Source of the DNA: Sodiomyces alkalinus F11 | Lineage: Eukaryota > Ascomycota > Sordariomycetes > Glomerellales > Plectosphaerellaceae | Reading direction: 5' to 3' | Length of the DNA stretch: 64,000 bases | NCBI RefSeq assembly: GCF_003711515.1 | Contig: NW_021167079.1 | Span: 547,471 to 611,470, forward strand | Shown here: positions 13,453 through 57,066 of the stretch, one piece after another | Layout of the letters: each line of letters opens with the position of its first letter | How positions within the stretch are numbered: the stretch's first letter is position 1 | Program-made: the position numbers and the translations under genes | Notes under the pieces: model-generated | Told to the model about the DNA's origin: nothing | What the model saw: only the letters and a program-made list of their open reading frames with translations | Database searches by the model: none

Positions 13453-14916
13453 ATACCTCCTAAGGAGACTAATAATAATAATAATAATAGTAGTAAGCGG
13501 CCGGTATCTAAGCTAATGGCTAGTAGCGCTTCTAAGAAGCGTAAGACCGCGACGACTATAGCGTTATCGTCGTTAACCACCCCTTATTAAGAGGTGGTGG
13601 ATATTAGGGAAGGGGCCTCCGGGGGCTTAACCCTTAAGGACCCTTATTCCCGCTACGCCGGCTAGCTAGCTAAGATCAATTTTAGTAATAAAACGTCTTA
13701 CCTACGGTTTAAGTCGTGCCGGCACTCTAGTATAACCTCCGCTAAGTATACTTTTTACTTTAGGTATAATAGTCGTCGTTATAATAAGCTTCTTACCGCG
13801 GGCTATAACGCGGCTATTTAGTTATAAAAGGTCCTTATCGTCGTCGCTATAAAGAATAGCCTTAATAATAGCCGTCGCGTAAATTCTTTTTAGGGGGGAA
13901 GCTAATATAGGCGTATATTAACCGTATCGTAGACTATAGCTATAGAGTACTAGAATATCCTTAAGGCCTCGCTAGGTAAGCTTAAGAGGGAGATAACCTT
14001 TACCGCCGCCGACGAGTCTTATACCGCTTATCGGGCGAAGGAAGAAGTTAACGACGCCCGCTAGAAAATAGTAGATAAAATCCTTAAGTCTCTCTAGAAT
14101 TTAGCGTTATCGCTTCGCCGGTATATCGATTAATAGGATTAATAGATAGCCGTGTAGGAATACCTCGCCGTCGCCTTTAAGAGGGTTACTGCTAGTATAG
14201 CGTATAACCCTCTAGTAGTCCCCCCTTTTAATATACTACTAACTTCTTTTCCTCTCCTACTATCTCTTCCCTAGCTAGATATCTCTCCTCCCGCCTTTAC
14301 GCCCTCTGACTTATTCGCCGACGATAATAACGACCACGACGGTATATACTACGGCCCTCTTAACCCCTATAATATCCCCGAGTCTAAGCCTATAACGCTT
14401 ACCCCGGCGCCGAAAAAAAAGGCGCCGGCTAAGAAGAAGGCTACGCCTAAGAAGATAACGCCTTTAATACCCATACCGAAAAAGAAGAAGAAACAGTAAA
14501 AGGCTAAGCCTCCTATTATTCTCTCGGATAATACGCTATCCATTAACGGGTAAAAGGTGGAAGGGAATAGTACCCACGTAAGTGGAAGCGTTACTACTAT
14601 AGGGTAGAGCGAGGTATATATAGAGGAAAACGGGGAGGGCCTTTAGGCACCTATATCCTTAGATTCGGAGTTAGAGAGTTACGCCGATAATCTATAACCG
14701 TAGTAGGTATCCTTAGGGGTTATACCGAGGATCTATAGCTATAGTAGGTGGTTAAAGGTATATACGGAGGATTAAGTAGGGGTTATATCGAGGATTTATG
14801 ACTATAGTAGGCGGTTAAAGGTATACAAGGAGGATTAAATAGGGGTTACACCGAGGATCTATAGCTATAGTAGGTGGTTAAAGGTATATATAGAGGACTA
14901 TTTTTTTTTAATATAA
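13453..14916 (+). pseudogene. Antisense accessory ORF of element D (487 codons, unknown family)
   Basis: One frame without indels runs from ATA at 13453 (probably a mutated ATG; element E has the same ATA-CCT context) to TAA at 14916, with only TAG/TAA interruptions. It lies on the strand opposite to gag-pol. Order along the protein: a Pro/Asn/Ser-rich N-terminus with a basic KKRK patch; a segment with VVDI, INFSNK and YTFYFRYNSRRYNK; a middle part with KEEVNDARQKIVDKI (helical); a Lys/Pro-rich region with APKKKAPAKKKATPKK; the motif SEVYIEENGEG; and a C-terminal array of three 21-residue repeats. The order and motifs match the antisense ORF of element E, so it is conserved at protein level. 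I recognise no domain; the basic patches suggest a nuclear or nucleic-acid-binding protein, which is inference. Confidence 0.7.
14716..14904 (+). repeat. Three tandem 63-bp repeats in the antisense ORF of D
   Basis: Units start at 14716, 14779 and 14842 and each encodes 21 residues containing PRIYSYSRWLKVY. The exact multiple of three keeps the frame open. Differences between copies are mainly transitions, as expected from RIP after duplication. Confidence 0.88.
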
Positions 14917-15119
14917 CTTATAGGGTACGCCCGCTCACCACTTTAATTATACCCCCTTAATAGTCCCGTCGTGACTTATAACCGTGTAACCGCCTAAGGG
15001 TAGGAGATAAAAAAGAGGGAAAAAGGGATAGAAGAAGGGAAACGCTTAACCAGTTAAGGGGGGCAGATTAAAGAAGAATAGAGAAGAAAGACTTAGCGGG
15101 TTAGTCGTGGTCCTACGAT

Positions 15120-18100
15120 ACTTCAGGTATATCGTGGTTCTATAGTACTCCCGCTATATCGAGCTTCTACTTAAAGTAGGTGTTAATAAGCTTATTCGGT
15201 ATATTACGTTTTAGCTCCTATATATTCTCCTCGTTATTATAGCCGACCTATTTAATAAGGTATTAGCGCTATCTCCACTAATAATAATAGTTTAAGATTA
15301 CTTCGACCTTATATTTATTAGAGTCCGGTTCTATATCGATATCCTATAGTTCGGGTATCTTTCTATTATAGGTCCTTTAAAATTCTAGTAAGGAGATAGG
15401 GAAGACGTTATAGATCCTTATAGTCTTCGAGAGGGCGAGTTAATATACTAGTCTATATGTGCCTATAACCTTAGTGATTTTATACGGTCCGATAAACTTA
15501 TCGCTAAGTTTCTTTACAGGCCTACGCTATCGGATATTCTTCGTGGAGAGTAAGACGTATTCGTTAACCGTAAATTATCTTTAGGTCCTCCTATTATTAT
15601 AGTATCGTTCGTATATTCCTTAGGCTTTTTAATTAAGTCTATAAGGGAGCGGCGGCTAGCCACAAGTTACTCGGCGTATATCTCGGCCTTAGCTAAATAA
15701 GCCTCCCCCGCCCTAGGTAATTAGATTTCGTTAAGGCCCCTCGGGTTATAACCTATTAGTATATCCGCGGGTATTCGTCGTATAGCGGAGTACCACGCCG
15801 TGTTATAAGTGAATTCCGTAAGGGCTAAGCGGTCTATCTAGTCGTTTTATTCCTAATAATAGAAAACCCTAAGGTAGTATTCCACGTTCTAGTTCTATCT
15901 CTTTATCTAGCTATTAGTCTACGGGTACTACGCTATAGATAAGCTTCGCTTAGTACCGAAGTAACGGTAAAGGGTAGCCTAAAAACGGCTTATAAATAAA
16001 GACCCTTAGTCGGATATAATCTTATTAGGGACTCTAAAGGCTCGAAAGATATAATACTATAATATATCCGTAAGTCCCTTAGTAGTAAGGCTACTACTTA
16101 TAGGGATATATAACGCGTACTTCATTAGACGGTATACGATAATGAGAATCGCGTCGCGTTTCCTGCCCCTATAATAGATAGGCGATAGTCCCGTAATAAA
16201 GTTAATTAAAATCTCCGCGAAAGGACGATCTAGAATAAAAAGACTCGCTAGCTCGCCGTACGGCTTATAATACCGCGGTTTTATTTATTAGTATACTACG
16301 CAGGTAGGTATAAATTCTCTAACGTCTTGAAGGAGGTAGTCCTAAAAGTAAAAGCCCGATACGCGCTTTACGGTATAGGCGACCCCGTAATAACTAGTAT
16401 TAGGTCTATCGTGGAAAGCTTATAGCACTTTATCTTATAGCCCCGAATAGTTTAGCACGAACACTCGTCCCTTAAAACGGAGGACGCCCTCGACGTCTCT
16501 AGACTAATATCCCTTTATAGCCACGTCGCTATAGACCTCCCGCTACTAGTTATAAAAGGGGTCTTCGGCTTACGCCTCGACAACCTCTTCTACTAGGGTA
16601 GGGTCGGTTAGCGCTATAGGTATATTTAGGTTCGTCGATACTATAAGCAGGGGTATATTAGGGTTTATCGATACTATAGGTATATCGGGGTCCTATACGG
16701 TTCCCGTGCTAATCACGGTAAGTATAAACTTCTTAAAAAATAACTTTACGGCGCGAGTCCGATTAGCGATTAAGGACTATTCGTAGGGGGTATACTACGG
16801 CTTCCGCGAGAGGCTTTTAACGGGGTTTAACGTACCGGGCCTATACCTAATCTCGAAATCAAAAGGGGCTAGTTCTTCTAGCTACTAGGCATACTATCCC
16901 TTAAGCTTTAGCTTATTAAAAAGGTGATAATAGTTTAGGTAGTCCGTTAAGACTATAACGGGGCTCTAACTATAAGCGATATAGTACCGCTATATCCGAA
17001 ACGATTTAATTATTACTATTAGCTTAGAATCGGGCGTATTATAGTTTAGCTCGGCGCTATATAACTTTTAGGATATAAACGCGACGGGTCTTTATAAACT
17101 ATCTTCTTACTAGCTTATTACCGCGCTGATAGCGAATATAAAGGTATCGGGTTTAACACGTATAGGTAGCATAGGATTAAAATATTATAGTACCGGGGCG
17201 TCCTAGAATATTAGTTTTAACCGTTCGAATACGGTATAGGCACGCGGGGATAGGCGTAGGAGTCCGGACTAAGCACCTTTTAAGAGGTCGGTATGGGGGG
17301 TAGCCGCTTTAGAATAGTTTTTAATAAAGCGCTTATAGAACCCAGTAAAACCGAGGAAGATTTAGATCTTCTTAATACTATTAGACGTTTCCTAATCCTG
17401 GATAGCCTTAACCCGCGCGGGATCTATATGTACCCTATCAGGGCTATAGATAAAACCGAGGAATTCTACGTCGCGAGTCTTAAATTCGTATTTATCGGGG
17501 TTAGCGTAGAGGGACTACTCCCGGAGCCTAGCCAGGACCTAATATACGTGCTTCCGGTAATCTTCTAAGCTATTACTATAGATAAGGATATTATCTAAGT
17601 ATATAATATAGATCGTATTAATATATCCGGCGAGGGCTTAGTTAATATACCGTTAAAAACTCGCGGGGGTATTAGTTAGGCTAAAGGGTATTACGAGGTA
17701 TTCGAAGTAGCCGTATTTTATACGGAACGCTGTTTTCTATTTATTGCTAGCGCTAATCCGGAGCCGGTAATAAGCGTCCTTAAGGTCTAGCTTAGTATAG
17801 TACTACGCTAAGGATAAACGGTCTAGAATCTTATAAATTAATAGTAGCGGGGTACGATCTTTAATAGTCACTTTATTTAATCCCCTATAGTCTATGTAAA
17901 GGCGTAACTTACCACTCTTCTTAGGGACGAATAGGATAAGAGCCCCGTAAAGACTAAACGATAGTCGGATCTAACCCTTACGGACAGCATCTTAGATATA
18001 ATAGCGGAGGACCTTAAGCTCTTATACGACTAGTAGGTAGATAGGGCCGAAAGGGGGCTTCTTCCCTTCCTCGATTTTAATTACGTGGTCCTATTATTAA

Positions 18101-20050
18101 TAGGCGGGGAGCCGTCCGGTATTATCGATATCGAATACGTTAGCGAAATCTTAGTATAGTTTAGGGAGGATAGCCGATTTAGGGGGGGGGTATTAGATTA
18201 ATATTAAGGCCTACCCTAGCTACGCGTTAGACTAATATAGAGGAGGATAGGGTTAAAACCGTTGCGGCCTCCCTTATAGCTTTCCGTAGTTCTTATCGGC
18301 TCGAGATAACGTGGAGGTCCGAGCGTTCTAAGGGGTAATTCTAGGTACTAGTTTACTAATCAATTATAGGGTTAACGGCTACTAGCTAAGGTCGTCCTAG
18401 GATCATTCAGGAGCCTTTAGGGTCTAGGTTTATAACGTGGAATTTAACGCGTTATACTTTTCTTCGTTTCTATCGGTTAGTCGCGAAGATAAGTCGAGTA
18501 ACGGAGCCGAGGGTGGATTTCTCTTATCCCTCCGTGATCTAGGATATAGGGAGGGGTAGTCTAAAGGGGACTTAGTCAGGACTTAGAAAGGATCGGTCTA
18601 AAACGTTAATATTGGCTCCCCTATCCAGGAGAGCCGGGGTCTATACCTATTCCTTACCTTAATAGAGGGAAACGCGCGCTTTTACTAGTATAGTAGTAGC
18701 GGCCGCCGCTTAAGGCGGGGTTAGTTCCTAGGCTATCTCGCCTACCACGCGACCTACTATCGGGCATATCGGCGAAATAGGCAGTTCGTTTAGATTAGCA
18801 CGAGTAGGGGAGGGGTAAATACTAGCGTAATAACCCTTCTAGTTATAGTTAAAGTATATAATAAGTTTAATTAGGGTACGAGGGGGCCTAGCCTAATCCT
18901 ATAGTTCTCCCGGGTTCTTAGCGGTTCTAGGGGGGTTCGAAGTCGCTATTATTCTAGGGAGGGTTCCTCGGCCACGGCTAGTACGGGGGGTATTCGGCTA
19001 CTATCCCTTTATTAGGGGCTTGATTTTTAGTTACTCGGCCCTCTTATATTCCTTATTATATTCTAGGTAGGTTTTCGGTATTCTATATATAGATAAGACG
19101 TGGTCCCGGATTAGGGGTAGGACTCGAGTAAAGACTATCTAGATCCGCTATTAGTCTAGTAGGCGACTAGGGAGTTCCGCTTCTAGGGCTTCCCACCGCT
19201 AGATAAACTTCGTAAAGGGTTCACCGGGCTTCTAGTTCGAACGGTTATTAGTTTATATATTAAGGGCGACCTTAAGTAAACGCGTATTATAATCCTTAAC
19301 TTATTCGCCTAACTAGGTTTCTAGGGCTCCCTAAATAACCCGGGACAAATTATTATCGTAGGCGTGCCGGAGGTAAGATTACTATCTTTCTTTAAGATAG
19401 TTTAGTAGGGAGGCTATAACGTAGTAGTTCTTCGAGGTGTTATTAGGAAGGCTATTAGGGTCGATTATAAACCGTTACTTTACCTCCTAAATAAATATCC
19501 GGTATTTTATCTATAACTCACCGTTCTACTTAGGGACTACGTAGTTAACCTTCGCCTATAAGGAATTAGCCCTAGATCTAGTAGAGGTCCGGGGGGGATT
19601 AGCCTTAACATGGCCTCGAATTATAGAAGAAGAGGGAATAAAGGACTAGGTATCTAGAACGGAGTGATAGGGCTCCGCGATACGTTATCGTATAATAGCA
19701 CGGCCGTTAAGGTCAGGATAAATCAAGGAATTAGTCCTAACGGCTTCGAGGGCGATAAGTCGGTCGAGTTTACGCTTCCGCGCCTCCGATACCTCGAACC
19801 ACTTAATCCGTTCCCTAACCTATACGTCGGTTAGCTAGTTATAGGGGATACCCTTATAAGGATAGGATAGGCGGGACGGGGTAGGGGTAATAGAGGGTAC
19901 TATACGCTAAGGGGACGGGGGGTAAGGGTTAAGGTCTATCTCCGTTTAGGGCATAGCTTAGTCACGTTATACCTATATCGTGGAGGCGCCTAGGCTAAAG
20001 GGATTATCGATATTTAGTAAAAGGTCGGAGAGGCTAGCTATATTATAGGT
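15120..20050 (-). pseudogene. Element D gag-pol polyprotein (chromovirus), decayed
   Basis: On the - strand the order is gag (about 20050-18860), CCHC zinc knuckle (about 18850-18790, FNYNQKGYYASIY with both Cys after the first mutated to Tyr), protease (about 18650-18450), RT (about 18300-17450, with SLTNTPASF and the catalytic box VYLDNILIYS at 17605-17577), RNase H, integrase (about 16800-15400) and a C-terminal chromodomain at about 15350-15190 (QYLIKQVGYNNEEN). Chromodomains of this class are thought to steer integration to histone-marked heterochromatin, which agrees with the nested insertion. Stops are TAG/TAA; the second catalytic Asp of RT is Asn. The element is not able to act on its own. 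Confidence 0.82.
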
Positions 20051-20136
20051 CTTATTATTCTCGTAGGAGGATATTATTTTCCTATCAGTACTCCTTAACG
20101 GTCCTTATGCCCTTTAGAAAGGTAGAGCGATTATTA

Positions 20137-20510
20137 TATTAGATAGGTAGTTATAAGGAGTAAGAAGGTAGTAGCGAGAGGGTCTAAAAGGGAATAGACG
20201 TGGATTAAGTAGTAGTCACGGCTAGTCCGAATATAGGTGGCCCTAAAGAATCAGAATAATCGCTACCCTCTCTATACTAAGGAGGGGGTACTATATAAGC
20301 ACTATATACTCCTAGGCCAACGCTAGGGTAGTTAAACGGATATCGTAAACGGATATCTACGCCTAAGCCTAGGCCACGGCCCTGCATAGTGGCATCGGCC
20401 CAGGGCAGCCATAGCCACGTTAAGCCGGGCGCCCGGTCTTATCTATACGGGAACCCGTTATAGTCCCATTATATATCCGGCCTCTATCTCCTAGGCAGGG
20501 GCATCTAACA
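20137..20510 (-). repeat. 5' LTR of element D
   Basis: This 374-bp copy differs from the left LTR almost only by transitions (for example tgcatagtggcatcgg here and tatatagtggtatcgg there), and both copies carry mutations the other lacks. The primer-binding region just inside, on the - strand, contains TAATCGCTCTACC, shared with element E. Confidence 0.92.
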
Positions 20511-20515
20511 CGTGG

Positions 20516-20602
20516 TAATTTAGTCTCGCTGAATACTCGGCGATCTGAGCGTATCTCCGATCCTATATAGTATTAATCTATAGTGCTACTTAGTTCCGTA
20601 TA
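20516..20602 (-). repeat. 3' LTR of element C, right fragment
   Basis: These 87 bp continue the C LTR after the insertion of D and end TTCCGTATA. The - strand polypurine tract follows at 20603-20616. Confidence 0.88.
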
Positions 20603-21369: not shown

Positions 21370-22378
21370 TGCGTTATTTATCTCCGCTCGTACTAGGCGT
21401 GTATATCTATAAGTTTATCCTTACCTTTACTGAGCGTTCGGCTTCTAAAGTATTTAGATTCTGGATAGTCTTTTAGGAGCTACCTAGACTATTTAATATA
21501 ATTACTACTAGCGTCCTCTAGAAGGAGGCCGACGAAAAGCTAACGCCGATCGGTTAGTATTATTTTTATTTACGGCTTTAGACCGTATATAAATAGTTCC
21601 GTAAAGCTTTAGATAAAGTCGTTTATCCCCCCGCCGCCGCTAATACTAACCGCCTTATACTCGATAAGCTATTATCGATTCGGTCTCTTTTAACTATTAA
21701 CCTAATAATACGGGTTTATACCTATTATTCGCTATCCGCTCGGCTTATACTAACCTCTTTTAGGTCGATAACCTTTAGGCTAATAAGGCCCGTTCCCTTA
21801 TAGGAATAGTTATGCCCCCTAGGGACTATAGCCTTATTACTTTTATCATGCTATAGCGTGCTATCCGTGAGCTCCGGGGCGTGGACGTTAAGGAGTATCC
21901 CGATAAGCGTTCGGCTTAAGCCGCCGGTCGTAACTAGCGCCGTATAACTTTATTCCCTCGTTTACAGGGTCTAGCCAGTACCCTTACTAGTATTAATAAG
22001 CCCCGCCGCCCCCTAAGATCCGTTACCTTTACCGGCCGCTATACCGCCGCCTATAGGCCCTAAGTTTATATCTAATCGGACGATAAGAACGGTATCGTTA
22101 AGTAGTCGCCGCCCTCTACTACTAGTATCGCCTCCCCCGCTATTAGCGTCGCCTCCCCCGCCGCCTCGCCTATTACCGCCTCGCCTATTACCGCTAATAG
22201 CCCTAAGGTTAGTGCTAAGTTATCGCCCGTGGCCGCCTTATCCGAGGAGGAGGAGGAGATAGAGGAGGAGGGTATTAAGCCCGACTCTAATAATATCGAT
22301 ATAAAGAGTACTAATCCCTCGGAGGAGGTTATCGTTATTAGTAACGATAATAACTCCTTTAAGGGTTTTAATAACTAA
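21370..22378 (+). pseudogene. Antisense accessory ORF of element C (unknown family)
   Basis: This frame is opposite to pol, in the same position as in D, E and I. The first part (about 21370-21720) reads FTERSASKVFRFW, then DEKLTPIGQYYFYLRL and FRKALDKVVYPP. After a change of frame near 21720-21750 a second part continues as MPPRDYSLITFIMLQRAIREL at about 21812 and ends with an Ala/Pro/Ser linker, an acidic stretch (SEEEEEIEEEG) and TAA at 22378. Stops inside the frames are TAG/TAA. By eye it is not similar to the D/E protein. The frame change could be an indel or a mutated intron. No domain recognised. Confidence 0.55.
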
Positions 22379-22559
22379 GGGATAGATTTTCCGGTAGCTG
22401 TAGGCGCTATATTAATAGGGTTAGGGTTAATCGTCTTATAATCGCCTTTTAGTATTATTACCCCGTATATAACTCTCCTTTACCTTATTTACTATTCCGC
22501 TATATAAGATAGTATTAATTTTCTACTTATAGTTTAATTTTATATACCGGCTATTCGGC

Positions 22560-27820: not shown

Positions 27821-28043
27821 TATTAAGGAATAGGCTATAATACTAGGGAAAAGATACACTATAACGGATAGTATTATTCGGACTTTTTAGTCGTATATTA
27901 TAAAGACTTTAACTTAAGGAGGAAAAGGGGACTTTTTCCCCCCTACGCTAATATAGTAATTTAGTCTCGCCGAACACTCGGCGATCTAAGCGTATCTCCG
28001 ATCCTATATAGTACTAATCCATAATACCACTTAGTTCCTTACA
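27821..28043 (-). repeat. 5' LTR of element C (intact copy)
   Basis: This 223-bp copy equals the sum of the two left fragments (136 plus 87). It starts TATTAAGGAA and ends TTCCTTACA, followed by the duplication cgacg. Confidence 0.92.
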
Positions 28044-28048
28044 CGACG

Positions 28049-29375
28049 CTATTAAACGCGATACAGATTAGTACCTAGCCACCCGCTAAACTAATACCTA
28101 CTAAGAGTATATTAAGTTCGCTTAGTACCCTGCGAATAGCCTTAAGAAGCTCGGGGAGTGGTTGGATAAGTGGCAGCTATTACTATAAAGCTATAACGAT
28201 ACCGGTTTAAAGCCCGCTATATATATATAGGTTATAGACTTCTTTAGAGATATACGCCCCTATACCGGCCACGATTAGACTAAGGCCAAGGGACGCCTTA
28301 TAGATAACTAAGTAGTTATACCCGAAGACCTTTATACCCTCGGCTAGAAGTATATTAATACTAGACTTAAAGACTAAGGAAAACGCGGTAGCCACCGCGC
28401 TATAGTATTCCCTGCACTATATACCGGAAGCGAAAAGGGTAAAGATACCTTAGAGGCCACGGCTAAGCCCCGTAAGAAGGGCGGCCGTGGGAAGAATAAA
28501 CCTAAGAATCCCACCGCCGCGGTATCTATAGCTATACCTTTAGCTACTTTAACTAACTATTCCTCTTCTAAACGCCGCTAATCTACTTTATAAAGAGGGC
28601 AGATCTACCGCGTATACGCTATACCTAGCCACGATATTAACGCCTACTTCTATCTATTCCCGGATATAGTATATAACGACTAGACGCCCTTTAAGAGCAC
28701 TAAAATAACCGCCTAACGGATCCTTAAATACGACCCTACGCTACGCGCGGAAGTGGAAGAACTACGCGCCGTAAAGAAGGTAAAGAAGGATATAAGCCGG
28801 GACTCTATATAGCTTAAAGAGGCGTGACTCGACTATAATAGCGTCCGTAGTATCCGTAACGGCGTCTCCTACGCCGCTAGCTTTATAGCAGGAACCGCTA
28901 TGACTAGTTACCCTCTCCGAGCCTCTGCTATCCTTAATTCCGGTACCACTATTTATATTTTTAACGATTTTCCCCGTTTATCTGATTTTATACCCGCCAC
29001 GCAGGGAGACTACGTAGTAGCCGGCAATTCGTCCTTGTCTATTAAAGGTTACGGTAACGTAACCGTAAGATTGAACGGACTAATAGGAGGCCTTGATTTC
29101 AGGCTATTAAATATCGTATACTACGAGGATTTTGCCTATAATTTAATCTCTAACTAACGCCTACGTTTTCGAGGATACTAGTAGGATTAAAAGCCACTAA
29201 ATAACTATATTCGGCGTTCCGATAGATCTATACTATACTAGCTAAGTTACCGCTTTAATTATACCGTTATTAAATACATACTCTCTAACTAATCTACGGC
29301 TAGTTTTCTAAGCTCTTCTTCTACCCGAGAAGCTATCTATAAATCGACGATACGCTATCCAAGCACTATGGAAAG
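28049..29375 (+). pseudogene. Element B gag (rest) and protease
   Basis: The frame continues the B gag after C: YLATRQTNTYQEYIKFA-like sequence, then GEWLDKWQLLL, typical of copia gag. An aspartic protease follows near 28930-28970 (ILNSGTTIYIFND, the catalytic Asp of DSG changed to Asn) and an open stretch to 29157. Similarity to element A continues to about 29375, where it stops abruptly in mid-gene at the integrase fragment of element I. Confidence 0.8.
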
Positions 29376-29720
29376 GGTAATTAGCCTATACGTAGTCGAG
29401 CTCGCTATACTATCGTAGATCTATCCGTAATTCTACGTGGACTTATTATATCGCGCGGGCGATAACCCCCTTCCGGGATAGGTAGTAGATAACCCTTAAC
29501 CACCGCTTATTCGAAAAATAACCGATAGTAAAGAATAGAAAGTCGAGGAAATCCTCTACGCGAAGATAAAAAGGCGAGGCAGGGGATTAAGACGTAAAGT
29601 ACTAGTATGATAGGTAGAATACTATAAGCCTATATAGGAACCTCTAGAACTATTAGCGTAAACGCGGGTATTTAATAAGTTTAAGAGGAAATTCGGCTTA
29701 GTAATAACGAATAATAGCCT
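29376..29720 (+). pseudogene. Element I integrase C-terminus and chromodomain
   Basis: Translation gives YVVELAIL-like and IYP-FYVDLLYRAGDNPLPG segments typical of the integrase C-terminal region. A chromodomain follows (VEEILYAKIKRRGRGLRRKV, then EPLELLA and FNKFKRKFG). Stops are TAG/TAA. The rest of pol is missing. Confidence 0.75.
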
Positions 29721-29843: not shown

Positions 29844-31190
29844 TTAATATAAGCCTAGATTGATATCCTTAGCCTCGAAATCGCTATCCTTAGGATTATT
29901 GACTTTCGTAAAAGTCTTACCCTTATCGCCCCGTTATAGGTTAAAGTCCGTCTCCTTAACCTTATCGTTATCTTTATCGTCGCTATTATCGGGGATTATA
30001 ACCGCGCTAACGATAATTATACCCGTAAGCGTAAAAGCCCGCCTACGCTCCGCATATTATTAGGGTTCGGAGATAATAATATTAGCGCGACCGACTACGA
30101 GTATCTCCCTAAATAGCCGAGTATACTCCCTTAGCTTTATAAGACTAAAGCGTCTAAAGTCTTTATCCGATAACGTTAACCCCGATAAAGAAGTAGGAGT
30201 AATAAGATAGGTGTTCTTTTCCGCTATAATATTAGGAGGGACTAAGCCTAAAACTACTACCTTACCTATGACCTTATAAGGAGGAGATAAGGCTAGCTAT
30301 TTCGCCCTAATAACGAGCTCCTCTAAAGGCGATACGTTTAGTCCCGATACTATCTCTTCTACGACCTTTAAAGAAGAAGGAAAGACTAGTATAACTACCT
30401 TATTAATAATCTTTATTACCGGAGGAAGCGAGGCTAGTTTAGCTACTTTATTAATAACCCTAGGAAAAGGTAATAAGGCTAACTACGGTGCTACCGCTTT
30501 TTAGACCTCTTAAGGAGGAGAAGGGGCTAGCGCGACTATTATACCGGGAGCCTCTGCGGGATATATAGCTATAGGTAACGTTACTGTTATCGCTTCCCTA
30601 GCTATAAGGGTATCCTAAAACACTGCGTAGGCGTTAAGATACGGTTCTTACTCCTAGAAGAAGAGTTAGCGATACTATTAGACCTCTTAAGGGGAAGGAA
30701 GTCTTATAGGGGCGTTCTCGTTATCGTCGCTAATAAGGGTAGCCGTCTTAAATAACCTCTACGCGTAGCCTTTAAGGTACGCTAGGAGAGGAGTATACTA
30801 GTATATCTTTATAGAGTATATATAGTATTTCTTCCCCCGATTAATCTAGCTATAATAAAGGCGCTTATACTTTCTATTAACGGTATTACGAGTATAAAGG
30901 AGGTATAGCTTAGTATAAATAGTACCGGGAGGGTGCTTAGAAGGCCAATTACCCGCCGATTTCTTCTTCTTAGGCCGCGGTAAGGGCGATAATATAAACT
31001 ATTATACGGTTAATATCGCCTTAAGAAGTAAGAGCGTTATATCTATATTATTATCGGCGGTATACTTACTATTATTATTACCCCTATTATCGCCGGGGGC
31101 TAGCGCCGTCTATAAAAATAATACAAATTAGTAAAAGGTTCTTAATAAACAGATCGTAAGCAAGAGACGGCTTATCTTAGACGGGGAACT
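29844..31190 (-). pseudogene. Antisense accessory ORF of element I (about 440 codons, unknown family)
   Basis: A single - strand frame without indels runs from near 31190 to a TAA at 29846-29844, opposite to the remnant pol. It reads through TAG/TAA only. Visible parts are an N-terminal hydrophobic stretch, a basic PRPKKKKSAGNWPSKHPPG segment, a Tyr/Lys-rich part (TVNRKYKRLYYS, KKYYIYSIKIY), a long Val/Leu-rich middle, then DKDFRRFSLIKLREYTRLF, and an acidic tail (PDNSDDKDNDKVKET). The start is not clear. I see no similarity by eye to the D/E or C versions. Position and orientation are the same as in those elements. Confidence 0.55.
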
Positions 31191-34969: not shown

Positions 34970-36183
34970 AGAATTCTGCAGGATCGCGGCTAGCTTAGAA
35001 TCAATATTAGCACTCGGTTCCTAAGACCGATAAAGAGAGGGCGAGGATTACGGTAAATCAGAGTCCTATAATTATTTAACGCGAGGATATAATCTAAAAG
35101 GGATTTACGAATAAGGAATATTAACAGAATGTATCGGAGATACATAAGCGAAGCTAAAAGGCTTATAAGGGTAAGGTTCGAAGCGATAAGAAGAGTTCTA
35201 ACGCCTATATTTCTACTAAGAAAGCTATAACGCTTCACCTATTTATCGAGAAGACTATAATACTTTTAGAGGGGGAATCTACTATTCTCTAATCTTATAT
35301 TAGGGAAAAGACTAAGGCACTTCGCTTATCTACCGGGAAATAACTTTACTAGATAGCCTACTCCTAGTAATATTAAGAAACTTAAGGACTATAGTTAACG
35401 TTCCTCGTACTTACCACTAATCTATTAACTACGCTACGGGGAAGGTTAGACCGGAATCTAGCGATTAGCTCCTAGCGCGGTATTTAGCGAATCTTATAGT
35501 CGCCTATAATTACTAATACTCGGCCTTAACTCTCTGCTATAGAAGAGATCTTTCCTATTCCATAACTAATAAACTACCGTTAGGCAGGTCCTACTTCTAT
35601 ACCTAATTAGGATATTCCTGGATAAACTTATAAATATAGAATAACTCCTTCTCCTTAGAGGATAACGGGTCTATCTGCTATAGATTATAGGCAGGGGAGT
35701 GTAGGATAAAAACGCTATAAGACTATAGATAAGGTAAGAGGATCTAGAGCTAAGAATAAGGTTCGATATAGGGGTATAACTATCGTGTTATTAACTATTA
35801 ATAACTAGATAACGTTAAAGAAAAAGGGGTAAACACGATATAAATAAACGCCTCGTGCTCGTAAATATATAAAGGCGGATTATGTGATAATAAAGCGTTT
35901 AGGGCGTTTAAAAATTCATAATCGTTTAATCTTAAGTAAAAGAGAAATCTGTAAGGGTGCAGACGTATCGTTAAATTATCAGATTATAAGAAAAAACAGC
36001 TATAGGTGTGCAGCTTAGTGTTACTTATATGTATAGTTATAGGGATATATACCGGGGATCTACAGGACAGATGACAGATTTTAGTAACTTAGTCGATTAC
36101 GTTCAAAACGTGCGGAAATATAGATACGCAAAAACAAAACGGGTATAGTATCGTAAACGGTCGTAATAAACAGTTACTACTAT
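34970..36183 (+). pseudogene. Antisense leader ORF of element H (about 400 codons, unknown family)
   Basis: One frame on the strand opposite to gag-pol runs without indels from near the gag start to the 5' LTR, a distance of 1.2 kb, with only TAA/TAG stops. Typical segments are TDKERARITVNQSPI, KAYKGKVRSDKKSSNAYIST, LTTLRGRLDRNLAISS, KYIKADYVIIKRLGRFKIHN and GADVSLNYQIIRKNS. The composition is that of a soluble, rather basic protein. The sense reading of the same DNA looks far less protein-like. Gag and this ORF diverge from a common point near 34965. Element G has the homologous region. Start and stop are uncertain and no domain is recognised. Confidence 0.6.
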
Positions 36184-38130: not shown

Positions 38131-38335
38131 TATCGAATAGACTATAGTCTTTTCGGTTACGTAATACGCCGGATTACTAAGAGTAGAATCCGGGTAGACG
38201 CTTACAGAATCGGCACTATATAAAATACGGTAGCAGCGTTTCCTTAACGGTCTAAGACAGTTATAATTATACATAATTACCTTAATCAAATTTTGACCCA
38301 TTTTTGTGACGATTTTGACTACGCTTTATCTGACA
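38131..38335 (+). repeat. 3' LTR of element B
   Basis: This 205-bp LTR starts TATCGAATAG (TGTCGAACAG mutated at TpG and CpA) and ends ATCTGACA. It is followed by the agctg duplication. Confidence 0.93.
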
Positions 38336-38340
38336 AGCTG

Positions 38341-38746: not shown

Positions 38747-39915
38747 ATAGTAGTAACTGTTTATTACGACCGTTTACTATACTATACCCCTTTTTCTATT
38801 ATTTTTACGTATCTATATTTTCCGCGCGTTTACTGATAACGTTGCCCGATCTATTATCTATCTCGTAGATCCTTAGTATATATCCCGTATCTCTGCAGTT
38901 ATATAGATAAGTAACGCTAAGCTATAGATCTATAGCCGTTTTCCTTATAACCCGATAATTTAATATCACGTCTACACCCTTTATAGATTTTCTCTTTTAC
39001 TTAAAGATTAAACGATTTCACACTTTTAAACGCCCTAGACGCTTTATTCCCACGTAATCCGCCTTGATATATTTACGAGTTTCTATCGTATTTACCCCTT
39101 TTTTTATTAACGTTATCCAGTTATTAAGTAATTAGTAATACGATAGTCACACCCCTATAACGAACCTTACCGTTAGCTATAGACTTTTCTTTCCTTCGTC
39201 TATAATCCTATAATACACTTATAGTCCTCTTTTCTCCTACCCTCCCCTTCTTATAGTAGATAAACCCGCTATCCTCTAAGGAGAAGGAGATATTCTATAT
39301 TTATAAGTTTATCCAGGAATAATCTAACTAGGTATAGAAGCAGGATTTACCTAACGGCAGCTTATCAGTTATCGAATAGGAAGGAGCTCTTTTATAGTAG
39401 AGAGCTAAAGCCGAGTATTAGTAATTATAGGCGACTATAAGATTTACTAGATACCGCGCTAGGAGTTAATCACTTAATTCCGGACTAACCTTCCCTATAG
39501 CGTGGTTAATAGACTAGTGGTAAGTACGAGGAACGTTAATAGTAGTCCTTAAGTTCCTTAATATTACTAAAAGCAGACTATCTAGTTAAGTTATTTCTTA
39601 ATAGACTAGTAAGGCACCTTAGTCTCTGCCTTAATAAGTATTATAGTCTTCTCAATAGATAGGTAAAGTGTTATAGTCTTCCTAGTAGAAATATAGACGT
39701 TAGAACTTATCCTATGACTTCGAACCCTACCCTTATAAGCTATTTAGCTTTACTCATGTATCTCCGATAAATTCCGTTCATATTCCTCGTTCGTAAATCC
39801 CTTTTAGATTATATCCTCGTGTTAAATAACTATAGGACTCTAATTCACTATAATCCTCGCCCTCTCCTTATTAGTCTTAGGAACCGTCTACTAATATTAA
39901 TTCCGAGCTAGCCGC
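38747..39915 (-). pseudogene. Antisense leader ORF of element G (homologue of that in H)
   Basis: The - strand from about 39915 toward the LTR reads TNKERARIIVN, GFTNEEYERNLSEIH, YISTRKTITLYLSIEKTII, then further segments such as RKYIKADYVGIKRLGRLKV that match the H ORF in order. Stops are TAG/TAA. The LTR-proximal third seems to need a frame change relative to H. It lies head to head with gag. Confidence 0.5.
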
Positions 39916-39924
39916 GATCCTGCA

Positions 39925-48669: not shown

Positions 48670-48843
48670 CTTAATAACTCCGAGTAAGGTTTAATTTCAG
48701 CTTTAGCTCTAATATACGATAGAAAATATCCACTATATTTTCCCCGACGTTAACTTTTCACCTTACTTTAGGATCGAGATACGGGGAACTTAGTCTAGAG
48801 AATAACAGTAATCGGGACGATTATATTTTTAGGGGGAGGGTAT

Positions 48844-50395: not shown

Positions 50396-51609
50396 TAATA
50401 TTATTACTAATAATATCCTTAATATCTTTCGAGTATATCCTTCGTACTCGAATAAAGGATATCTTCCCCGTAAGCCTAGACCGTTCTCTTTCGAGTCAGT
50501 TTATCTGTTACGAGTCAGACAAAGGATATAATAGATTACGATATTATTACGATATCGATCCTTTACAAAGAACAAAGGATATCAACCCGTTCCCTCGGTT
50601 CGGTTCTTCTTTTCTTTATTCTTTATTCTGAATCCTTAATCCTTAATCTCAATCCCTTTTTCGATCCTAAGAAGACACAATACGCGCGCAGAGATCCTAC
50701 CCTACAATCCCATTATTACCTTCTTTTTTTTCCCACTGCTTTTCGTGACTTTCGTCCCTTCCGTTTATCCGATATCGTCAGATATCTTCAAAAGGTTATA
50801 AGCCCGGAAAAGCTCGACTAAAGTCTCGAAATAACGCATTCCTCAATTGCCTACGGTCGCAAGCCAAAAAGAGAATCCCCCGATTCCAAACAACAGTCCT
50901 CATTCCTATCCGACATACCACTCCACATACTACCGACACTGCCTACCTTCCTACCTTCCTACCGACCTACATTCCTACATCTACGATCCTTCGCTTCGAT
51001 CGGTCGGTCGGCTTAGTCGTACGCTTACAAATCTACAAAATCTACAGAAAAATCACAAAAGCCTACGATTACGTGAATTAAACGGGTGCACTATTCTTTA
51101 CGTACAGATACTATAACCACTATACTACGAGGGCTATTCTAGTTATTAATACTAGGATATCTTTTATTCCTTATAAGTCTTTAGTTCTACCTGAGATTTC
51201 CCCTGTGTGTTTTCCGATCGTGGAATCCTATATAAATATCGTGTTTTCTACGCGACCGTGAATCCCCTCGCTACGCGAAGACCCACTTTAGGATCCTCGC
51301 GAACAAAGGAATTCAACCGGCCCCACTTTGGATCCGCCAGAATAAAGGATTACTATCTTTAAAAACAAAGAAATTCTGTTATCCGCACGTACGGGTATCG
51401 TTTTTCTTTATCTACGGAGCTGTTTTTCCTTTTTCAGAATAAAGAACTGTATACCGGTTCCACTTTAGACCCGCACGAATAAAGGTATCACTACGGTAAC
51501 CACGTCTATGCTTAGAATAAAGAAAATAATAAAGAAAAGGACTATTTTTCCTTATTTATAGTATAACTTCATCAGTTCTTATCCAAAATAAACAAAATAA
51601 ATACCGTTC
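50396..51609 (+). other. Leader/LTR region of element F with repeated AAYAAAG motifs
   Basis: Sequence character changes here: CpA and TpG are common again. The left LTR of F should lie in this region (a possible start is TGTTACGAGTCAG at about 50508), but its end cannot be fixed because the partner LTR is outside the window. Motifs of type AATAAAGG or ACAAAGGATAT occur at about 50451, 50518, 50571, 51302, 51341, 51439, 51479, 51516 and 51528. Three diverged copies of a repeat starting CCACTTT lie at 51283-51309, 51323-51348 and 51460-51485. A small frame at 50847-51116 is low-complexity and has no recognised product. Confidence 0.5.
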
Positions 51610-54593
51610 AGGAGCTCTAAAGATACCCGCCCAGGCTAAACTTAAGGAAATCAACGTAAAGAAGCTAAAAGGTAGTCAGGACTACTAAACCTGGACGATA
51701 ACTATACATGCTTACTTCGCACGTAAGGGAAAGCTTCTAAAAGAGCTTATAAAACCCCTGCCTAAAGATACCTCTAATAAGGCAAAAGAAGAAGATTTAA
51801 AGACTACTGGAGATCTACTCTCCGCTCTGTAAGACAGGCCCCTAACGCAGGTTTAGGACCTTAATTTTACTTCAGAAATCTAGGAAAAGCTAAAATCCCT
51901 ATACGAGAAAAAGGGTTTTTAAGCAGACTACGACGTCCTTACGTCGTTTTTCAACCTAGATATCTCAGAATTCCCCACGCTTAAGGACTTTCTATATAAA
52001 GTCTAAGAAAGGTTAATTATCCTTCAAGGAAAGGATATTATTCTACCAGATAAGGTGGTTTTTGCCTGGACTCTGAATCGCCTCGACGAGCGTTATAACG
52101 TAGTCACCTCGCAGATCACGCAGGCTCTTCGGCACGATATCGATAGCTATATATTCGATAAAATCGTTACTAAACTAATAGATACGTCGAGGAAAATCGA
52201 CTCTTCCACCTCGAAGGCCCTACTTATAAAAGCTCAGAAAAATCAGAAAAAACAGTCGAACGGAGGATAGCAGAAGAACCAGAAGAACCTCTTCTGTAGT
52301 AACTGCAAAAGATCGAGGCATCTACCGACGAACTATTTCTTTTTATACCCTGAAAAAGCCCCTGCTAGCTAGGTAGTTAAGGGAAATTCAGGCTCAAGGA
52401 AAAATACCTAAAATCGGGTAAATAAAAATAAAAAGCCTCCGAAGACCAAGACGGCACCGTCGAAGCTATTATTACGAGAGACGGAAATACTGAATTTCTT
52501 CCGTTACTACGAGTAACAGAAACTCCTAGGGAAAATAAGCAATGACGAAACTATTAATTTAGTTTCTGATTTACCCCCTACGGAGGAGCCTTTTTCGGAA
52601 GCTGATGCCGACGATGAAGCCGAAGAAGAAGAAGAATCAGAAGAAGAAAAAGAAAAAGAAGAAGAAGATTAGGAAGAAGAAGAAGACTCGGATAACGAGG
52701 CTCTTCTAGAAGACGTTCCTATTATAACCAAGGCCACACGTCTCCCTGACCCCCACGCGGAAGACCTGATAGATAGGAAGGTATTTATCCTTTAGAATAA
52801 ACCCTAAATTAATAAAGATACTAATATAAATATAGGACGGGTAGTGGAAAAGATCAACAGGATTTTTGATAGTTCAACTAAATTAGATTTGAATTTTTAT
52901 ATTAATAGTGGTGCTACAGCACACGTTATAGTAAATAAAACGCTCTTTTCTACGTATAAAACTACCGAAAGTACTGCTAGTTGGGGTGATGCAAATAAAA
53001 TAAAAATAACAGGTACTGGTGACTGTTGTATTAAATTCAGGGATTCAGGAAGAATAATACTACTTCAGAACTGTTTATATATTCCCGAATTAGGTATAAA
53101 TATTATCAGCCTTCCCGTCCTAGATAAGAAGAAAATCTACGGTCTTACAGGAAATAACCAGCTTATTCTATTCCAAAATAACCAAAATAAAACCACCGAC
53201 GTTGTTACTAGAGCCGTTTTACATAACGGCCTCTACTAGGCTTCGGCACGGGCCCTAATGTATAGGGGGGTAATAGGGTCGTCGTCACGGTCCTTAAAGC
53301 CCTATAATAGTGCTATAAATATAACAGGAACAAAGAAGACTGTTTTAGATAAAAGAAAAGAAATAAAGAAACAGATTCTAGGAATAAAGGAATAGTCAGG
53401 CATAAAGAACACGGTCTCAGAAAATACCCACTTAAAGACCCACTCTTCAGGGGCATAAAGGAATATACAGGTCGTAGAATAAAGAAAAGAACAATCTGTA
53501 GAACAAAGAACAGAACAAAGAGACCGAAATAACCGTCGGAAAACAACAAATAACAAAGAGAACATAACGCTATGGCACTGCAGGATGGGTCATATTAACC
53601 CCACTGCTTTAAAATATATAGATAAAGATACTATAAATATATCTAAAGAAGATATACTAGAAATACAGAGCTGTAAAGCCTGTAGAAAAAGCAAGTCAGC
53701 TACGCTTGCGAATAAAGAATCCATTAATAAATATAAGGATTTTTCCTACCTTGAAAAGGTTTATATGGATTTATACGGGCCTATCGACCTTATAACCTAT
53801 AATAGAAAGCGTTGGATTCTATTTATAATAGACCGTTCCACACGGTATCTATGGGCAAAACTGCTTGTAGATAAATCAGAAATAACTGTTATAAACGCAA
53901 TAAAAGAGTGGAAGATTCCCGTTGAAAATAATAAATATAATATACAAATAAAAGAAGTAGATACCGACGGTGGGAAAGAATTCACGAATGCCTCGTTTAA
54001 AGGACTGTTCGTCGGAATAAATCATAATATAAAACTCCCGTATACCCACGAGACTCAAGGCTCGATAAAACGGGTTATAAGGACTATAATAGAAAAAGTC
54101 CGTTATTTTCTTTTCCACTCAGGCCTACCAAAATACCTTTAGGGGGATACGGTTTATTTAGCCGTCTATACGTATAATAGAACACCTAATTCAGCAGTAG
54201 GGTTTCAAACGCCCTACGAATTAGTAGAAAATCGTAAACCTAATATAAATAATATTCGGGTTTGGGGTTCCGTTATATATTATAAAAACAACGACCCGAA
54301 AATGAAACTGGATCCAGGAGCACTTTAGGGTGCTCTAGTAGGTTATAACGATTATAACTATAAAATATATAATCTTCGATCTAGGAAGACTACCTGGTAT
54401 CGTGACGTTTATATTCTAGAAAATCAGTTTCTGACTTCTTCTTCAGATACTATAATTAATAAAAATAACCCTGTAACCCATATAAATAATAATAATAAGT
54501 CTCCTACTATAAATATACCGCAGGTAGAACCGGTTTCCGACCCCGAGTCTCATCTACTCGGCGAGTACTATAATAATACTAAACGTACGTTTA
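51610..54593 (+). pseudogene. Element F copia gag, protease and integrase (first part of pol)
   Basis: One frame (frame 2 of the window) runs the full distance with few stops, nearly all TAG. Gag reads LKGSQDY, YFARKGKLLKELIKPLPKD and EKLKSLYEKKGF. The CCHC knuckle is at about 52290-52335 (CSNCKRSRHLPTNY, last Cys changed to Tyr). An acidic Glu/Lys-rich spacer follows at 52590-52720. Protease is near 52890 (FYINSGATAHVIV, Asp to Asn). An insertion rich in NKE/RTE follows at 53310-53560. GAG-pre-integrase is at 53575-53690 (CRMGHINP, CKACRKSK), then the integrase core with DLYGPI and DTDGGKEFTN; the catalytic Glu before RVIRTI is Lys. A post-integrase part (YNRTPNSAVGFQTPYEL) ends at 54593, where E is inserted. 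It is much less mutated than the rest of the island. Confidence 0.88.
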
Positions 54594-54947
54594 TGTTAAA
54601 TAGGTAGTCGTAAAGAGTGAAAAGGTAGGGTTAAGTAAGGAACCAGGTATGATCACGATGGGATTATAATAGGGTCTGAACGTGGGTATAGCTAAAGAAT
54701 CAGATTAATCGCTGGCCTCCCTATCTAAAGGGGAGGCTCCTCCGCCCCTTAAGACTATATTCCGCTACTCCTTAAGGACTGTTTATTTGCTTCCTTGAGG
54801 GCTGCCTTATTTACTTCGAGAGACTATTCTGTTTACTGTGTAATAACTACTTTATTAATGCCTCGAGGGGTCTTAGACTAGCCACGCCTAGACCCCTATA
54901 GGTTCACACTAAGGACATTTTATAACTACTGCTATAGGCACCTGATA
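54594..54947 (-). repeat. 3' LTR of element E
   Basis: It starts TGTTAAATAGG and ends CACCTGATA on the + strand. It contains a stem-loop at 54715-54737 (gcctccc/gggaggc), the counterpart of that in D. Confidence 0.93.
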
Positions 54948-55623
54948 TGGCGACCTCCCCCAGATACTCCTGTTCTTAGGAGCGCCCGATCCGTGCCGGC
55001 CTCGCGGCTCCTCCGCTATTTAGCCTCCGCGCCTGTCTTTAAATCCCTTCGACGCCCTGAACTAGAGCCTTCCACGACGGGACCCTAATAGGTCCCCGCC
55101 GGGTTCCTATAGGGAGCCTCCCTCGGCCGTAGCTTTAACCCGGGTATATACCCCCTTCGTCCGTAAACTAAAAACCACTAAAGCTAAACCGCTAAAGCTA
55201 ATATCCTAATCGGGCTCCAAATAGATTCTAGGGTGGTTCCTTCCCGGCCCTTCGGATTTACCCCTTTATCCTTCTGGGTTATCCCTTTTATCTATCTATA
55301 AAGACTCCCTCGCGTGGTGTTATATAGGGCCCGATATTACTCCTTCCGTGAATTTCGTAGCTTCCTTCTTTATACTAAAAATAGGTGCTTATAGAACTGC
55401 TTTTTAGGGATATCTCGTAACCTGCCGTTATTCTCTTTTCCTGTTCTTTTCTTCCTCTTCTATACTTAATTTTCGATCGTGCTATTCTTCGTGAGTTTTC
55501 TCCTAATCTAAGATACTATATACTAACGTTTTATAGTCTTCTATTAATTAACTACTATCTTATAAGTGCTTCTCCGTCTCTAGTCTAGGATACTAGCTAA
55601 CCACGAGATATAGTATAGTTACT
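54948..55623. other. Non-coding 3' region of element E
   Basis: It begins with the polypurine tract (on the - strand) and is C/T-rich, like 12686-13452 in D. No frame is recognised. It precedes the antisense ORF and may contain its promoter. Confidence 0.5.
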
Positions 55624-57066
55624 ATACCTTCTTAGGAAGATAATAATAATAAACGCGCCGCTACTCCGGCGAGTGTAACGCGGTCCTTTAAGAGGATTAA
55701 GATTATGGTTACGGCGTTAACCTCGTAGTCCACTAGGTAGTTAGCCCCGTAGCTAGCTACGCTAAAGCCTCTTACTCCTACTACGGCTGCGTTATCGTTA
55801 ACTGCTACGCCGTCGGTTACTCCACGCTAAAGGGTAGTGGATATCGGTATAGGCGGGGATCTAAGGGCCTCCTATATACGTTATACGGGTAAACTAGTAG
55901 CGATTAATTTTAAAGAGAAGACGTATACTATTAAGGCCGTGACCTATCGATATACCGATAACGGTCGGCGTACTAATAAGTATTACTACTACTCTAAGTA
56001 TAATAGCCTAAAGTACCGCGTGGTAAGTTATATATCTTTATTACCACTTAATCCCTATAGTCCCTTCCTTTATAGACTACTCCGTAATCCTATTAGTCTA
56101 ATATATGTAATAGCTTCCTATTACCAGTAAGAACGCTACCGAGTAGCTATAAAAGGTTTTAGTTATCGCTATCGATAAAGGTGGCCTAAATAAGAGTCGC
56201 CGCGTAAGTATTACTATATCCTTTCGTTAATCCTATATAGTACCCTTACTAATCCTATATAGTGCTAATACTAGGCTATAGTAGTTCGATACTAGGTTAT
56301 CCTTAAAAAGGCTTTAGGTTAAGCGACGCTAGAGGTTAACCGGTCGTCTGCCGAGAAAGCTATAGCTACTCGGCGTTAAGCTAAGGAAGTTACCGACGCC
56401 TATTAGAAAATGGCGGAAGATATCCACGAGAGGCTTAATAGTATAGAGTCGATCCTTAAGTAATTTATCGGGCTATAGTAGTAGCGTTTAGCCGTCGAGT
56501 AGAAACGCCTTAATATTAAATAATAACGCCTTATATTACACGAGCGCGACCTCGTGGCCTAAGAGCGGACGGCTACTACTTTTAAGTAAATAGCTACTCT
56601 TAACCTGGCCTAGGCTTAGGCCTAAGAAGACCTGCCTATACCCTTAGGGCCTGCCTTAGCCCCCGCGGGGGTTAGCTTTACAGGCGACGATATATTTAGT
56701 GATAGTGGCTCTACGTAACCTTAAGGCTTCGTGCCGTAAGGTCCTTAGGGTCCCCCGGATCCTTACGAAGTGCCTGACGATAATAATATAGTACCGGCCT
56801 TATTAGTAAAGAAGGGGAAGAAGGCTTTAACGCCCTTAACCCCTTTATTAGGGAAGAAGAAGAAGAAGTAGCAGAAGGCGAAGACGCCTCTATCTTTTCG
56901 GCCTTCGATATTATCCGCGGGTGGTGGGTAAGAGGGGGTAACGGCTACTACCGCGGGGTAGAGCCAGGTATATATAGAGGATAATAACGGCGAGGTAGCT
57001 AGGCGGGAGCCTACCCCTTTAGACGATAAGTTAGTAGGGTTTAAGGACGCCCTAAAGGGGCCGTGA
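55624..57066 (+). pseudogene. Antisense accessory ORF of element E (480 codons, homologue of that in D)
   Basis: A single frame without indels runs from ATA at 55624 (context ATA-CCT, as in D; probably a mutated ATG) to TGA at 57066, opposite to gag-pol. Internal stops are TAG/TAA. Parts in order: Asn-rich and basic N-terminus; VVDIGIGGDLRASYIRYTGK and INFKEKTYTIK (uninterrupted for 97 codons at 55837-56130); YYYSKYNSLKYR; a helical part with KEVTDAYQKMAEDIHERL; an acidic and Pro-rich linker; a Lys-rich region (VKKGKKALTPL, GKKKKK); and SQVYIEDNNGE near the end. The order and many motifs match D 13453-14916. The 63-bp repeats of D are absent. Function unknown. Confidence 0.72.

What the first reader, a model, noticed from the sequence alone, without database searches (positions are those of the whole stretch)
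13453..57066. Long reading frames antisense to gag-pol in every Ty3/gypsy element of the window
Seen: in D (13453-14916), E (55624-57066), C (about 21370-22378) and I (31190-29844) a frame of 340-487 codons lies opposite to pol, between pol and the 3' LTR; in H (34970-36183) and G (39915-38747) another lies opposite to gag in the leader. D, E, H and I keep one frame without indels, with stops of TAG/TAA type only, and read as charged, protein-like sequence while the other strand does not. Known: antisense additional ORFs exist in some plant Ty3/gypsy elements of the Tat lineage; I do not know of a described family in fungal chromoviruses. Inference: these are real accessory genes acquired more than once, possibly expressed from the opposite LTR or an internal promoter, and possibly acting in silencing escape or in regulation of pol by antisense transcription.
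Basis: partly seen in the sequence, partly recalled or inferred. Interest (0 to 1): 0.88.

Follow-up and report, generated by a model that had tools for sequence, protein, structure and literature searches.

The report
Spliced antisense gene in fungal retrotransposons
Two related families of dead, mutation-riddled jumping genes in a fungal genome carry a real extra gene on the strand opposite to their own enzymes, complete with introns, which joins a small and poorly understood class of "backwards" accessory genes known from grey mould and some plants.

Summary
The claim holds firmly for two of the six named frames. In D and E (related Ty3/gypsy families; E has a chromodomain) the + strand frame between pol and the 3' LTR is a protein gene antisense to pol. 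In 30 aligned copies of each family (the window's own included), exon lengths vary but stay in frame (E 30/30, 29/30, 27/30; D 26/30, 25/29); spacers and introns do not (7/30 to 16/30). Most internal stops stand where other copies keep CAG, as RIP predicts, and E's terminal stop is kept in 30/30. Transversions favour synonymous change (omega 0.65 and 0.70; spacers 0.82-1.44). Spliceosomal introns are readable only on the antisense strand, and E exon 2 matches the D protein only in the spliced frame. C and I are suggestive only, with results against them; H is rejected; G is ambiguous.

The kind is known: brtn of Botrytis Boty, gene23 of maize Grande, Retand. Introns, and selection measured from RIPped copies, make this a variant. 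Most likely it is an accessory regulator made from its own spliced antisense mRNA. No protein relative was found; a weak Scd6-like Sm match is a lead only. There are no RNA data.

The parts
12312..12683 (-). D 3' LTR (element on minus strand)
   Evidence: 94.1% identical to 20137-20508; orientation from RT on minus
20137..20508 (-). D 5' LTR
13453..13878 (+). D antisense gene, exon 1 (start column ATG in 3/30 copies, ATA in 27/30)
   Evidence: length kept mod 3 in 26/30 copies
13879..13932 (+). D antisense gene, intron
   Evidence: GT 26/30, CTAAC 27/30, AG 26/30; length kept mod 3 in 7/30
13933..14697 (+). D antisense gene, exon 2 with probable stop TAA at 14695
   Evidence: kept mod 3 in 25/29 copies; TAA in 29/29 copies with letters there
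15161..18228 (-). D pol (RT at 17449-17928; SH3_Tf2-1 in 15161-16000)
54593..54947 (-). E 3' LTR
   Evidence: 89.9% identical to 63334-63688
63334..63688 (-). E 5' LTR
55624..56022 (+). E antisense gene, exon 1 (start column ATA 28/30, TTA 1, ACA 1)
   Evidence: kept mod 3 in 30/30 copies with 11 different lengths
56023..56113 (+). E antisense gene, intron 1 (absent from D)
   Evidence: GT 27/30, CTRAY 29/30, AG 30/30; kept mod 3 in 16/30
56114..56203 (+). E antisense gene, exon 2
   Evidence: kept mod 3 in 29/30; matches D protein only in the spliced frame (53 against 8-17)
56204..56274 (+). E antisense gene, intron 2 (same place as the D intron)
   Evidence: GT 19/30 plus ATAAGT 10/30, TAYTAAY 29/30, TAG 29/30; kept mod 3 in 14/30
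56275..57066 (+). E antisense gene, exon 3 with stop at 57064
   Evidence: kept mod 3 in 27/30; stop in 30/30
57710..57853 (-). Chromodomain at the end of E pol
   Evidence: residues 1816-1863 of the frame given; 30.2 bits, cut-off 25.1
60467..60946 (-). E reverse transcriptase
21815..22379 (+). C: candidate antisense frame, unproven
   Evidence: indels 3, 42 (net), 3 against one copy; against it: another + frame has fewer stops, omega 1.03
29844..31190 (-). I: candidate frame, unproven
   Evidence: beyond base 75 all indels but one are multiples of three against 3 copies; against it: omega 1.58, equally open opposite frame
34970..36183 (+). H named frame: rejected
38747..39915 (-). G named frame: ambiguous, cannot be told from the mirror of a sense frame with fewer stops

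Best explanation
D and E each carry a spliced, protein-coding accessory gene antisense to gag-pol in the region between pol and the 3' LTR. Shown: the gene is shared by both families, its exons were under protein-level constraint while the elements were active, and it holds spliceosomal introns whose signals read only on the antisense strand. Inferred: it was transcribed from a promoter in the 3' LTR or in the 0.7-0.8 kb spacer after it, spliced, and translated into a protein of roughly 400-430 residues with Lys-rich, coiled-coil-like and acidic stretches, probably nuclear, that regulates the element's own cycle in trans (transcription, RNA fate or integration), as has been proposed for plant antisense accessory genes. 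Because the RNA that is reverse transcribed is the sense strand, introns of an antisense gene are not removed by retrotransposition; that explains how a gene with introns persists in a retrotransposon. RIP later destroyed the copies seen here.
For: Antisense position between pol and 3' LTR. Exon lengths in frame: E 30/30, 29/30, 27/30, D 26/30, 25/29, against 7/30 to 16/30 in introns and spacers of the same alignments. In columns with at least 30% stops the other copies mostly hold CAG (87 cells in E, 35 in D); E terminal stop in 30/30. Transversion omega 0.65 and 0.70, lowest of six frames in each family; spacers 0.82-1.44. Donor, branch-like and acceptor signals on the antisense strand. E exon 2 matches D only in the spliced frame, 53 against 8-17, 0 of 2000 shuffles. 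D and E + frames are the best of 36 frame pairs, 279 against 200.
Against: No transcript or promoter was seen. The minus frame that shares the wobble position has nearly the same omega (0.68 and 0.77), so substitutions alone do not fix the strand. Omega is well above that of E pol (0.29) and like that of D pol (0.69). E shows ATG at the start column in 0 of 30 copies. The E intron 2 donor is GT in only 19 of 30. No relative outside this genome was found and no Pfam family is reached over its cut-off. Function and location in the cell are guesses from composition.
Confidence: 0.7

Rival explanations
1. The antisense RNA, not the protein, is what matters: a spliced antisense transcript regulates pol through double-stranded RNA or interference, and the protein is secondary.
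For: Spliced antisense transposon transcripts without coding capacity are reported in Blumeria hordei (PMC10648671, passages); the plant review keeps this possibility open (PMC7264820, passages).
Against: In-frame exon lengths, conserved stop and omega below 1 show that the reading frame itself was kept.
Confidence: 0.12
2. A host gene with introns was captured in antisense orientation and carried as a passenger, without a use for the element.
For: The gene has introns and no relative among retroelement proteins was found.
Against: It is shared by two families whose pol has diverged to about 60-65% protein identity in the RT and integrase parts and stayed under constraint during the spread of each family. 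Apart from the LSM14 search I did not look for a host parent gene.
Confidence: 0.1
3. The frames are chance products of RIP composition, with no gene.
For: True for the named H frame and possibly for G, C and I: TGA-free runs occur in all frames and stop counts do not separate named from unnamed frames.
Against: For D and E: RIP makes only transitions, so it cannot keep indels in frame or make transversions synonymous, and the intron and homology tests agree.
Confidence: 0.02

Closest known systems
brtn of Boty / BcGypsy1 (Botrytis cinerea, Sclerotinia sclerotiorum; Zhao et al. 2011, Virology 417:248, not held, known here through passages of PMC7264820, PMC8365987, PMC4227169, PMC5987419)
   Same: An additional antisense gene between pol and 3' LTR in fungal LTR elements whose polyprotein ends in a chromodomain.
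   Different: Sequence relation and intron content could not be compared: no BRTN sequence was at hand and the primary paper was not held.
Plant antisense additional ORFs (gene23 of maize Grande, rice RIRE2, Silene Retand)
   Same: Same place and orientation, present in many copies, no clear function; gene23 is described as nuclear and transcribed from its own promoter (PMC7264820 and PMC11963269, passages).
   Different: Retand is a non-chromovirus lineage and its antisense ORFs mostly carry TRP28; no such match here. The passages seen report no introns.
HBZ-type antisense genes of HTLV-like retroviruses
   Same: Antisense gene with its promoter in the 3' LTR region (passage of PMC7264820); splicing of HBZ is recalled, not read here.
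   Different: Retroviral, no relation in sequence claimed or tested; promoter of the fungal gene unknown.
Spliced antisense transposon RNAs of Blumeria hordei (PMC10648671, passages)
   Same: Spliced antisense transcription of fungal transposable elements.
   Different: Reported as non-coding; here the exons were under coding constraint and no RNA was seen.

Membership tests
Antisense additional ORF between pol and 3' LTR (aORF-3R) | Lies between pol and 3' LTR, antisense to gag-pol | tested here: met
   for D and E
Antisense additional ORF between pol and 3' LTR (aORF-3R) | Present and conserved in many copies of the family | tested here: met
   30 copies of each family aligned; only the best-scoring hits were taken, so the share of all copies is not known
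Antisense additional ORF between pol and 3' LTR (aORF-3R) | Transcribed antisense from its own promoter or the 3' LTR | not testable with these tools
   no RNA data
BRTN of Boty | Sequence homology to BRTN | not testable with these tools
   no BRTN sequence at hand; primary paper not held
BRTN of Boty | Host element has a chromodomain polyprotein | tested here: met
   E: over cut-off. D: chromodomain not reported in the piece scanned
Retand TRP28 antisense proteins | TRP28 domain (PF04195) | tested here: not met
   not among Pfam matches at E up to 1
Scd6/LSM14 proteins | LSM14 domain over the curated cut-off | tested here: not met
   best E 0.0063, 12 of 45 copies; 15.2 bits against a cut-off of 30 for one copy; profile comparison gave probability 2.2%

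The most novel reading that the evidence does not exclude
Fungal Ty3/gypsy chromodomain elements encode, on a spliced antisense mRNA, an Sm-fold RNA-binding protein related to the P-body factor Scd6/LSM14, through which the element steers its own RNA between translation, decay and packaging. Antisense placement is what lets such a gene keep its introns through retrotransposition, and other families in the same genome (C, I) evolved unrelated antisense genes in the same slot.
Probability: 0.1. Interest if true: 0.8.

Novelty: new variant of a known kind. Interest (0 to 1): 0.55.

Why it matters
Antisense accessory genes of LTR retrotransposons are known from plants and from Boty-like fungal elements, with unknown function. 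A graveyard of RIPped copies gives a clean test of whether such a frame was a gene, because RIP makes only transitions and no indels, so in-frame indels and transversions record earlier selection. Introns in the antisense gene, one shared by two families and one only in E, indicate that splicing of an antisense RNA mattered. They also illustrate a simple rule: an antisense gene can keep introns in an element that moves through its sense RNA. Gene finders would miss such genes in other RIP-active fungi, so the same test could be run widely.

Tried and rejected
Stop counts and absence of TGA as evidence: rejected. Simple counts of transversion-variable columns by phase in bins: weak, replaced by codon-based counts and block lengths. 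An earlier acceptor for E intron 2 at 56260-56262 was dropped: AG in only 17 of 30 copies against 29 of 30 at 56272-56274, where exon 3 also lines up with D. Searches used slightly wider exon bounds than the final model (E exon 3 from 56257; D exon 1 to 13884 and exon 2 from 13942 to 14700); the lengths were recounted with final bounds, the omega and stop counts were not.

H named frame rejected, G ambiguous. C: only one further copy could be fetched; in-frame indels, but a different + frame has fewer stops and the transversion test is flat. I: three further copies, the most divergent ones chosen; mostly in-frame indels, but omega 1.58, and a chromodomain-like stretch at about 29480-29700 + seen by eye was not reported by Pfam.

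Relatives: none for one D copy or for eight copies, none in viral contigs; a RIPped pol piece as control found 346. Two AlphaFold2 runs gave mean pLDDT 39.7 and 34.6, too poor for a fold search; none was run. LSM14: recurring but below cut-off. Single members also matched unrelated families as well or better (NTF2_YvbJ 0.0048 in 1 of 45, Glyco_hydro_4C 0.02 in 2 of 45). A profile comparison gave probability 2.2% over 16 columns; the script then failed, so its shuffle control never ran. Solved structures: one hit, E 0.15, taken as chance.
Full report
Setting. The window lies in an unnamed 43.4 Mb genome of 22 contigs. From about 6 kb on it is a nest of RIP-mutated elements: in 2-kb bins TA/AT is 1.25-1.9 and (CA+TG)/(AC+GT) 0.11-0.69, against 0.60-0.83 and 1.00-1.05 in the first three bins, where a gene with Npa1 and NopRA1 domains lies. 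D has LTRs at 12312-12683 and 20137-20508, E at 54593-54947 and 63334-63688. Reverse transcriptase is on minus in both. E has RVT_1, RNase H, SH3_Tf2-1 and chromodomain matches over their cut-offs; the D piece scanned has SH3_Tf2-1 only. The D and E frames are therefore antisense to pol, lie between its 3' end and the 3' LTR, and run tail to tail with it.

Chance. The arguments from the sequence alone are weak. TGA-free runs are long in all six frames, and stop counts in the named frames are not lower than on the other strand for E (35 against 32 and 33) and hardly for D (26 against 28). Copies decide. The genome search gave 60 match rows for D and 41 for E, the window's own copy included and several rows being pieces of one copy; only 40 candidates were scored in each (46 and 134 found). 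I took the first 30 rows of each, with flanks, and aligned them; the counts below include the window's own copy.

Frame. By the splice model below, E exon 1 keeps its length mod 3 in 30 of 30 copies although 11 lengths occur (396-444 bases), exon 2 in 29 of 30, exon 3 in 27 of 30. D exon 1 does so in 26 of 30 and exon 2 in 25 of 29. Non-coding blocks of the same alignments: E 5' spacer 11 of 29, intron 1 16 of 30, intron 2 14 of 30, 3' spacer 12 of 28; D 5' spacer 13 of 29, intron 7 of 30, 3' repeat region 11 of 27. The copies share ancestry, so these are not independent events, but the control blocks share the same ancestry. In a core of 300 bases in D, 27 of 30 copies have exactly that length (the other 3 were dropped by the filter on length); in E 29 of 30 have 213 bases and one 207.

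Stops and starts. In columns where at least 30% of copies have a stop, the other copies mostly hold CAG (87 cells in E, 35 in D; D also CGG in 12), the precursors expected under RIP. All copies have a stop in 7 of 426 codon columns in E and 2 of 390 in D, one of the two in D being the probable terminal stop. The E terminal stop at 57064 is present in 30 of 30 copies and begins TGA in 20; TGA occurs in 5 cells inside the E coding columns. The D start column reads ATG in 3 and ATA in 27 copies; E reads ATA in 28, TTA in 1 and ACA in 1, never ATG. ATG to ATA is a RIP change on the other strand.

Substitutions. RIP makes only transitions, so transversions alone were counted. In the antisense frame omega is 0.65 for D (103 synonymous and 263 non-synonymous; 70.6 and 279.3 expected; p 1.6e-4) and 0.70 for E (103 and 236; 76.1 and 249.9; p 0.0017), the lowest of the six frames each time. 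Pol gives 0.29 in E and 0.69 in D; three spacers give 0.82 to 1.44 over all frames. The p values treat codon pairs as independent and are rough. The minus frame that shares the wobble position comes second (0.68 and 0.77), so this test does not fix the strand.

Introns fix the strand. Out-of-frame indels inside the E frame fall mainly in two clusters. On the antisense strand these are bounded by donor, branch-like and acceptor signals: intron 1, 56023-56113 (GT 27/30, CTRAY 29/30, AG 30/30) and intron 2, 56204-56274 (GT 19/30 with ATAAGT in 10 more, TAYTAAY 29/30, TAG 29/30). D has one intron, 13879-13932 (GT 26/30, CTAAC 27/30, AG 26/30), at the place of E intron 2. D has no intron 1, which allows a test: E exon 2, read in a shifted frame by the model, aligns with the uninterrupted D protein at 53, while the other five frames give 8 to 17 and none of 2000 shuffles reaches it (maximum 35).

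One gene in two families. Over the whole region the D and E + frames give the best of 36 frame pairs (279; next 200, a minus pair), far below pol (2266). By the final bounds the product has 396 codons in D and 426 in E. Lys-rich, coiled-coil-like and acidic stretches were noted by eye.

What the protein is. Unknown. Two searches of 5.8 billion proteins found no relative (6026 and 7994 candidates), although a RIPped pol piece found 346. The family that turns up most often among weak Pfam matches is LSM14, the Scd6-like Sm domain: 6 of 25 copies, best E 0.022, 12 of 45, best E 0.0063, all below cut-off. A genome-wide search gives the host protein (88.9 bits) and six sub-threshold places: one lies inside a listed E copy, three lie about 4 kb from a listed reverse transcriptase in the antisense arrangement, and two have none listed nearby. 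These are copies of one sequence, not independent hits. A profile comparison gave probability 2.2%, and structure predictions failed.

Other elements. C: pol is on minus with RVT_1 and RNase H over cut-off, and SH3_Tf2-1 (29.7 bits, cut-off 30) and Chromo (18.4, cut-off 25.1) below it. The frame 21815-22379 has indels of 3, 42 (net) and 3 bases against one copy, a flat transversion test (omega 1.03), and more stops than another + frame. I: indels beyond base 75 of the frame are multiples of three against three copies, save one, but omega is 1.58. H and G: the named frames are not the same frame of homologous DNA. The H frame has omega 2.39; the G frame corresponds to an H frame with omega 0.47 (p 0.039), whose mirror on the sense strand has 0.55 and fewer stops, so a sense gene explains it as well.

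Known work. [quoted passage not shown] PMC8365987, PMC4227169, PMC5987419, passages). The brtn paper itself was not held. Retand antisense ORFs mostly carry TRP28 (PMC11963269, passages). Spliced antisense transposon RNAs judged non-coding are reported in Blumeria (PMC10648671, passages). In nine searches of open-access papers I saw, in listings and in the passages read, no report of introns in such an antisense gene; the brtn paper may contain one.

Mechanism. Most likely an accessory protein made from a spliced antisense mRNA and acting on the element's own cycle. Shown: the gene, its splice signals, its past constraint. Inferred: promoter, transcript, place in the cell and role.

Noticed in passing
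51077-54646 +, with ORF 53585-54142: A Ty1/copia-type element piece (Pol_BBD, SH3_retrovirus, gag_pre-integrs and Retrotran_gag_2 over cut-off) in the least RIPped stretch of the nest, with a 185-codon open frame that weakly matches the integrase core.
   Followed up: partly
10678-12173: An inverted repeat: the stretch matches its own reverse complement at 86%, and parts recur at 5717-5923 and 38129-38336.
   Followed up: no
28930-29178 +: A Pol_BBD match just under cut-off (24.4 bits, cut-off 27): a Ty1/copia piece next to the frame called I; 28043-29372 recurs inverted at 9357-10681.
   Followed up: partly
14698-15120 and copies of D: Downstream of the D gene, copies differ by units of 63 bases: a tandem repeat between the antisense stop and pol, as in Retand elements.
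   Followed up: no
G000:C4:1461941-1462693 (L001): The best reverse transcriptase match of the genome lies in a 987-codon frame without stops, unlike the other 149 matches listed, which hold stops. What it is was not examined.
   Followed up: no
1-5489: Ordinary, un-RIPped genes at the left edge: MOR2-PAG1_C (3-1136) and Npa1 plus NopRA1 (2298-5486).
   Followed up: partly
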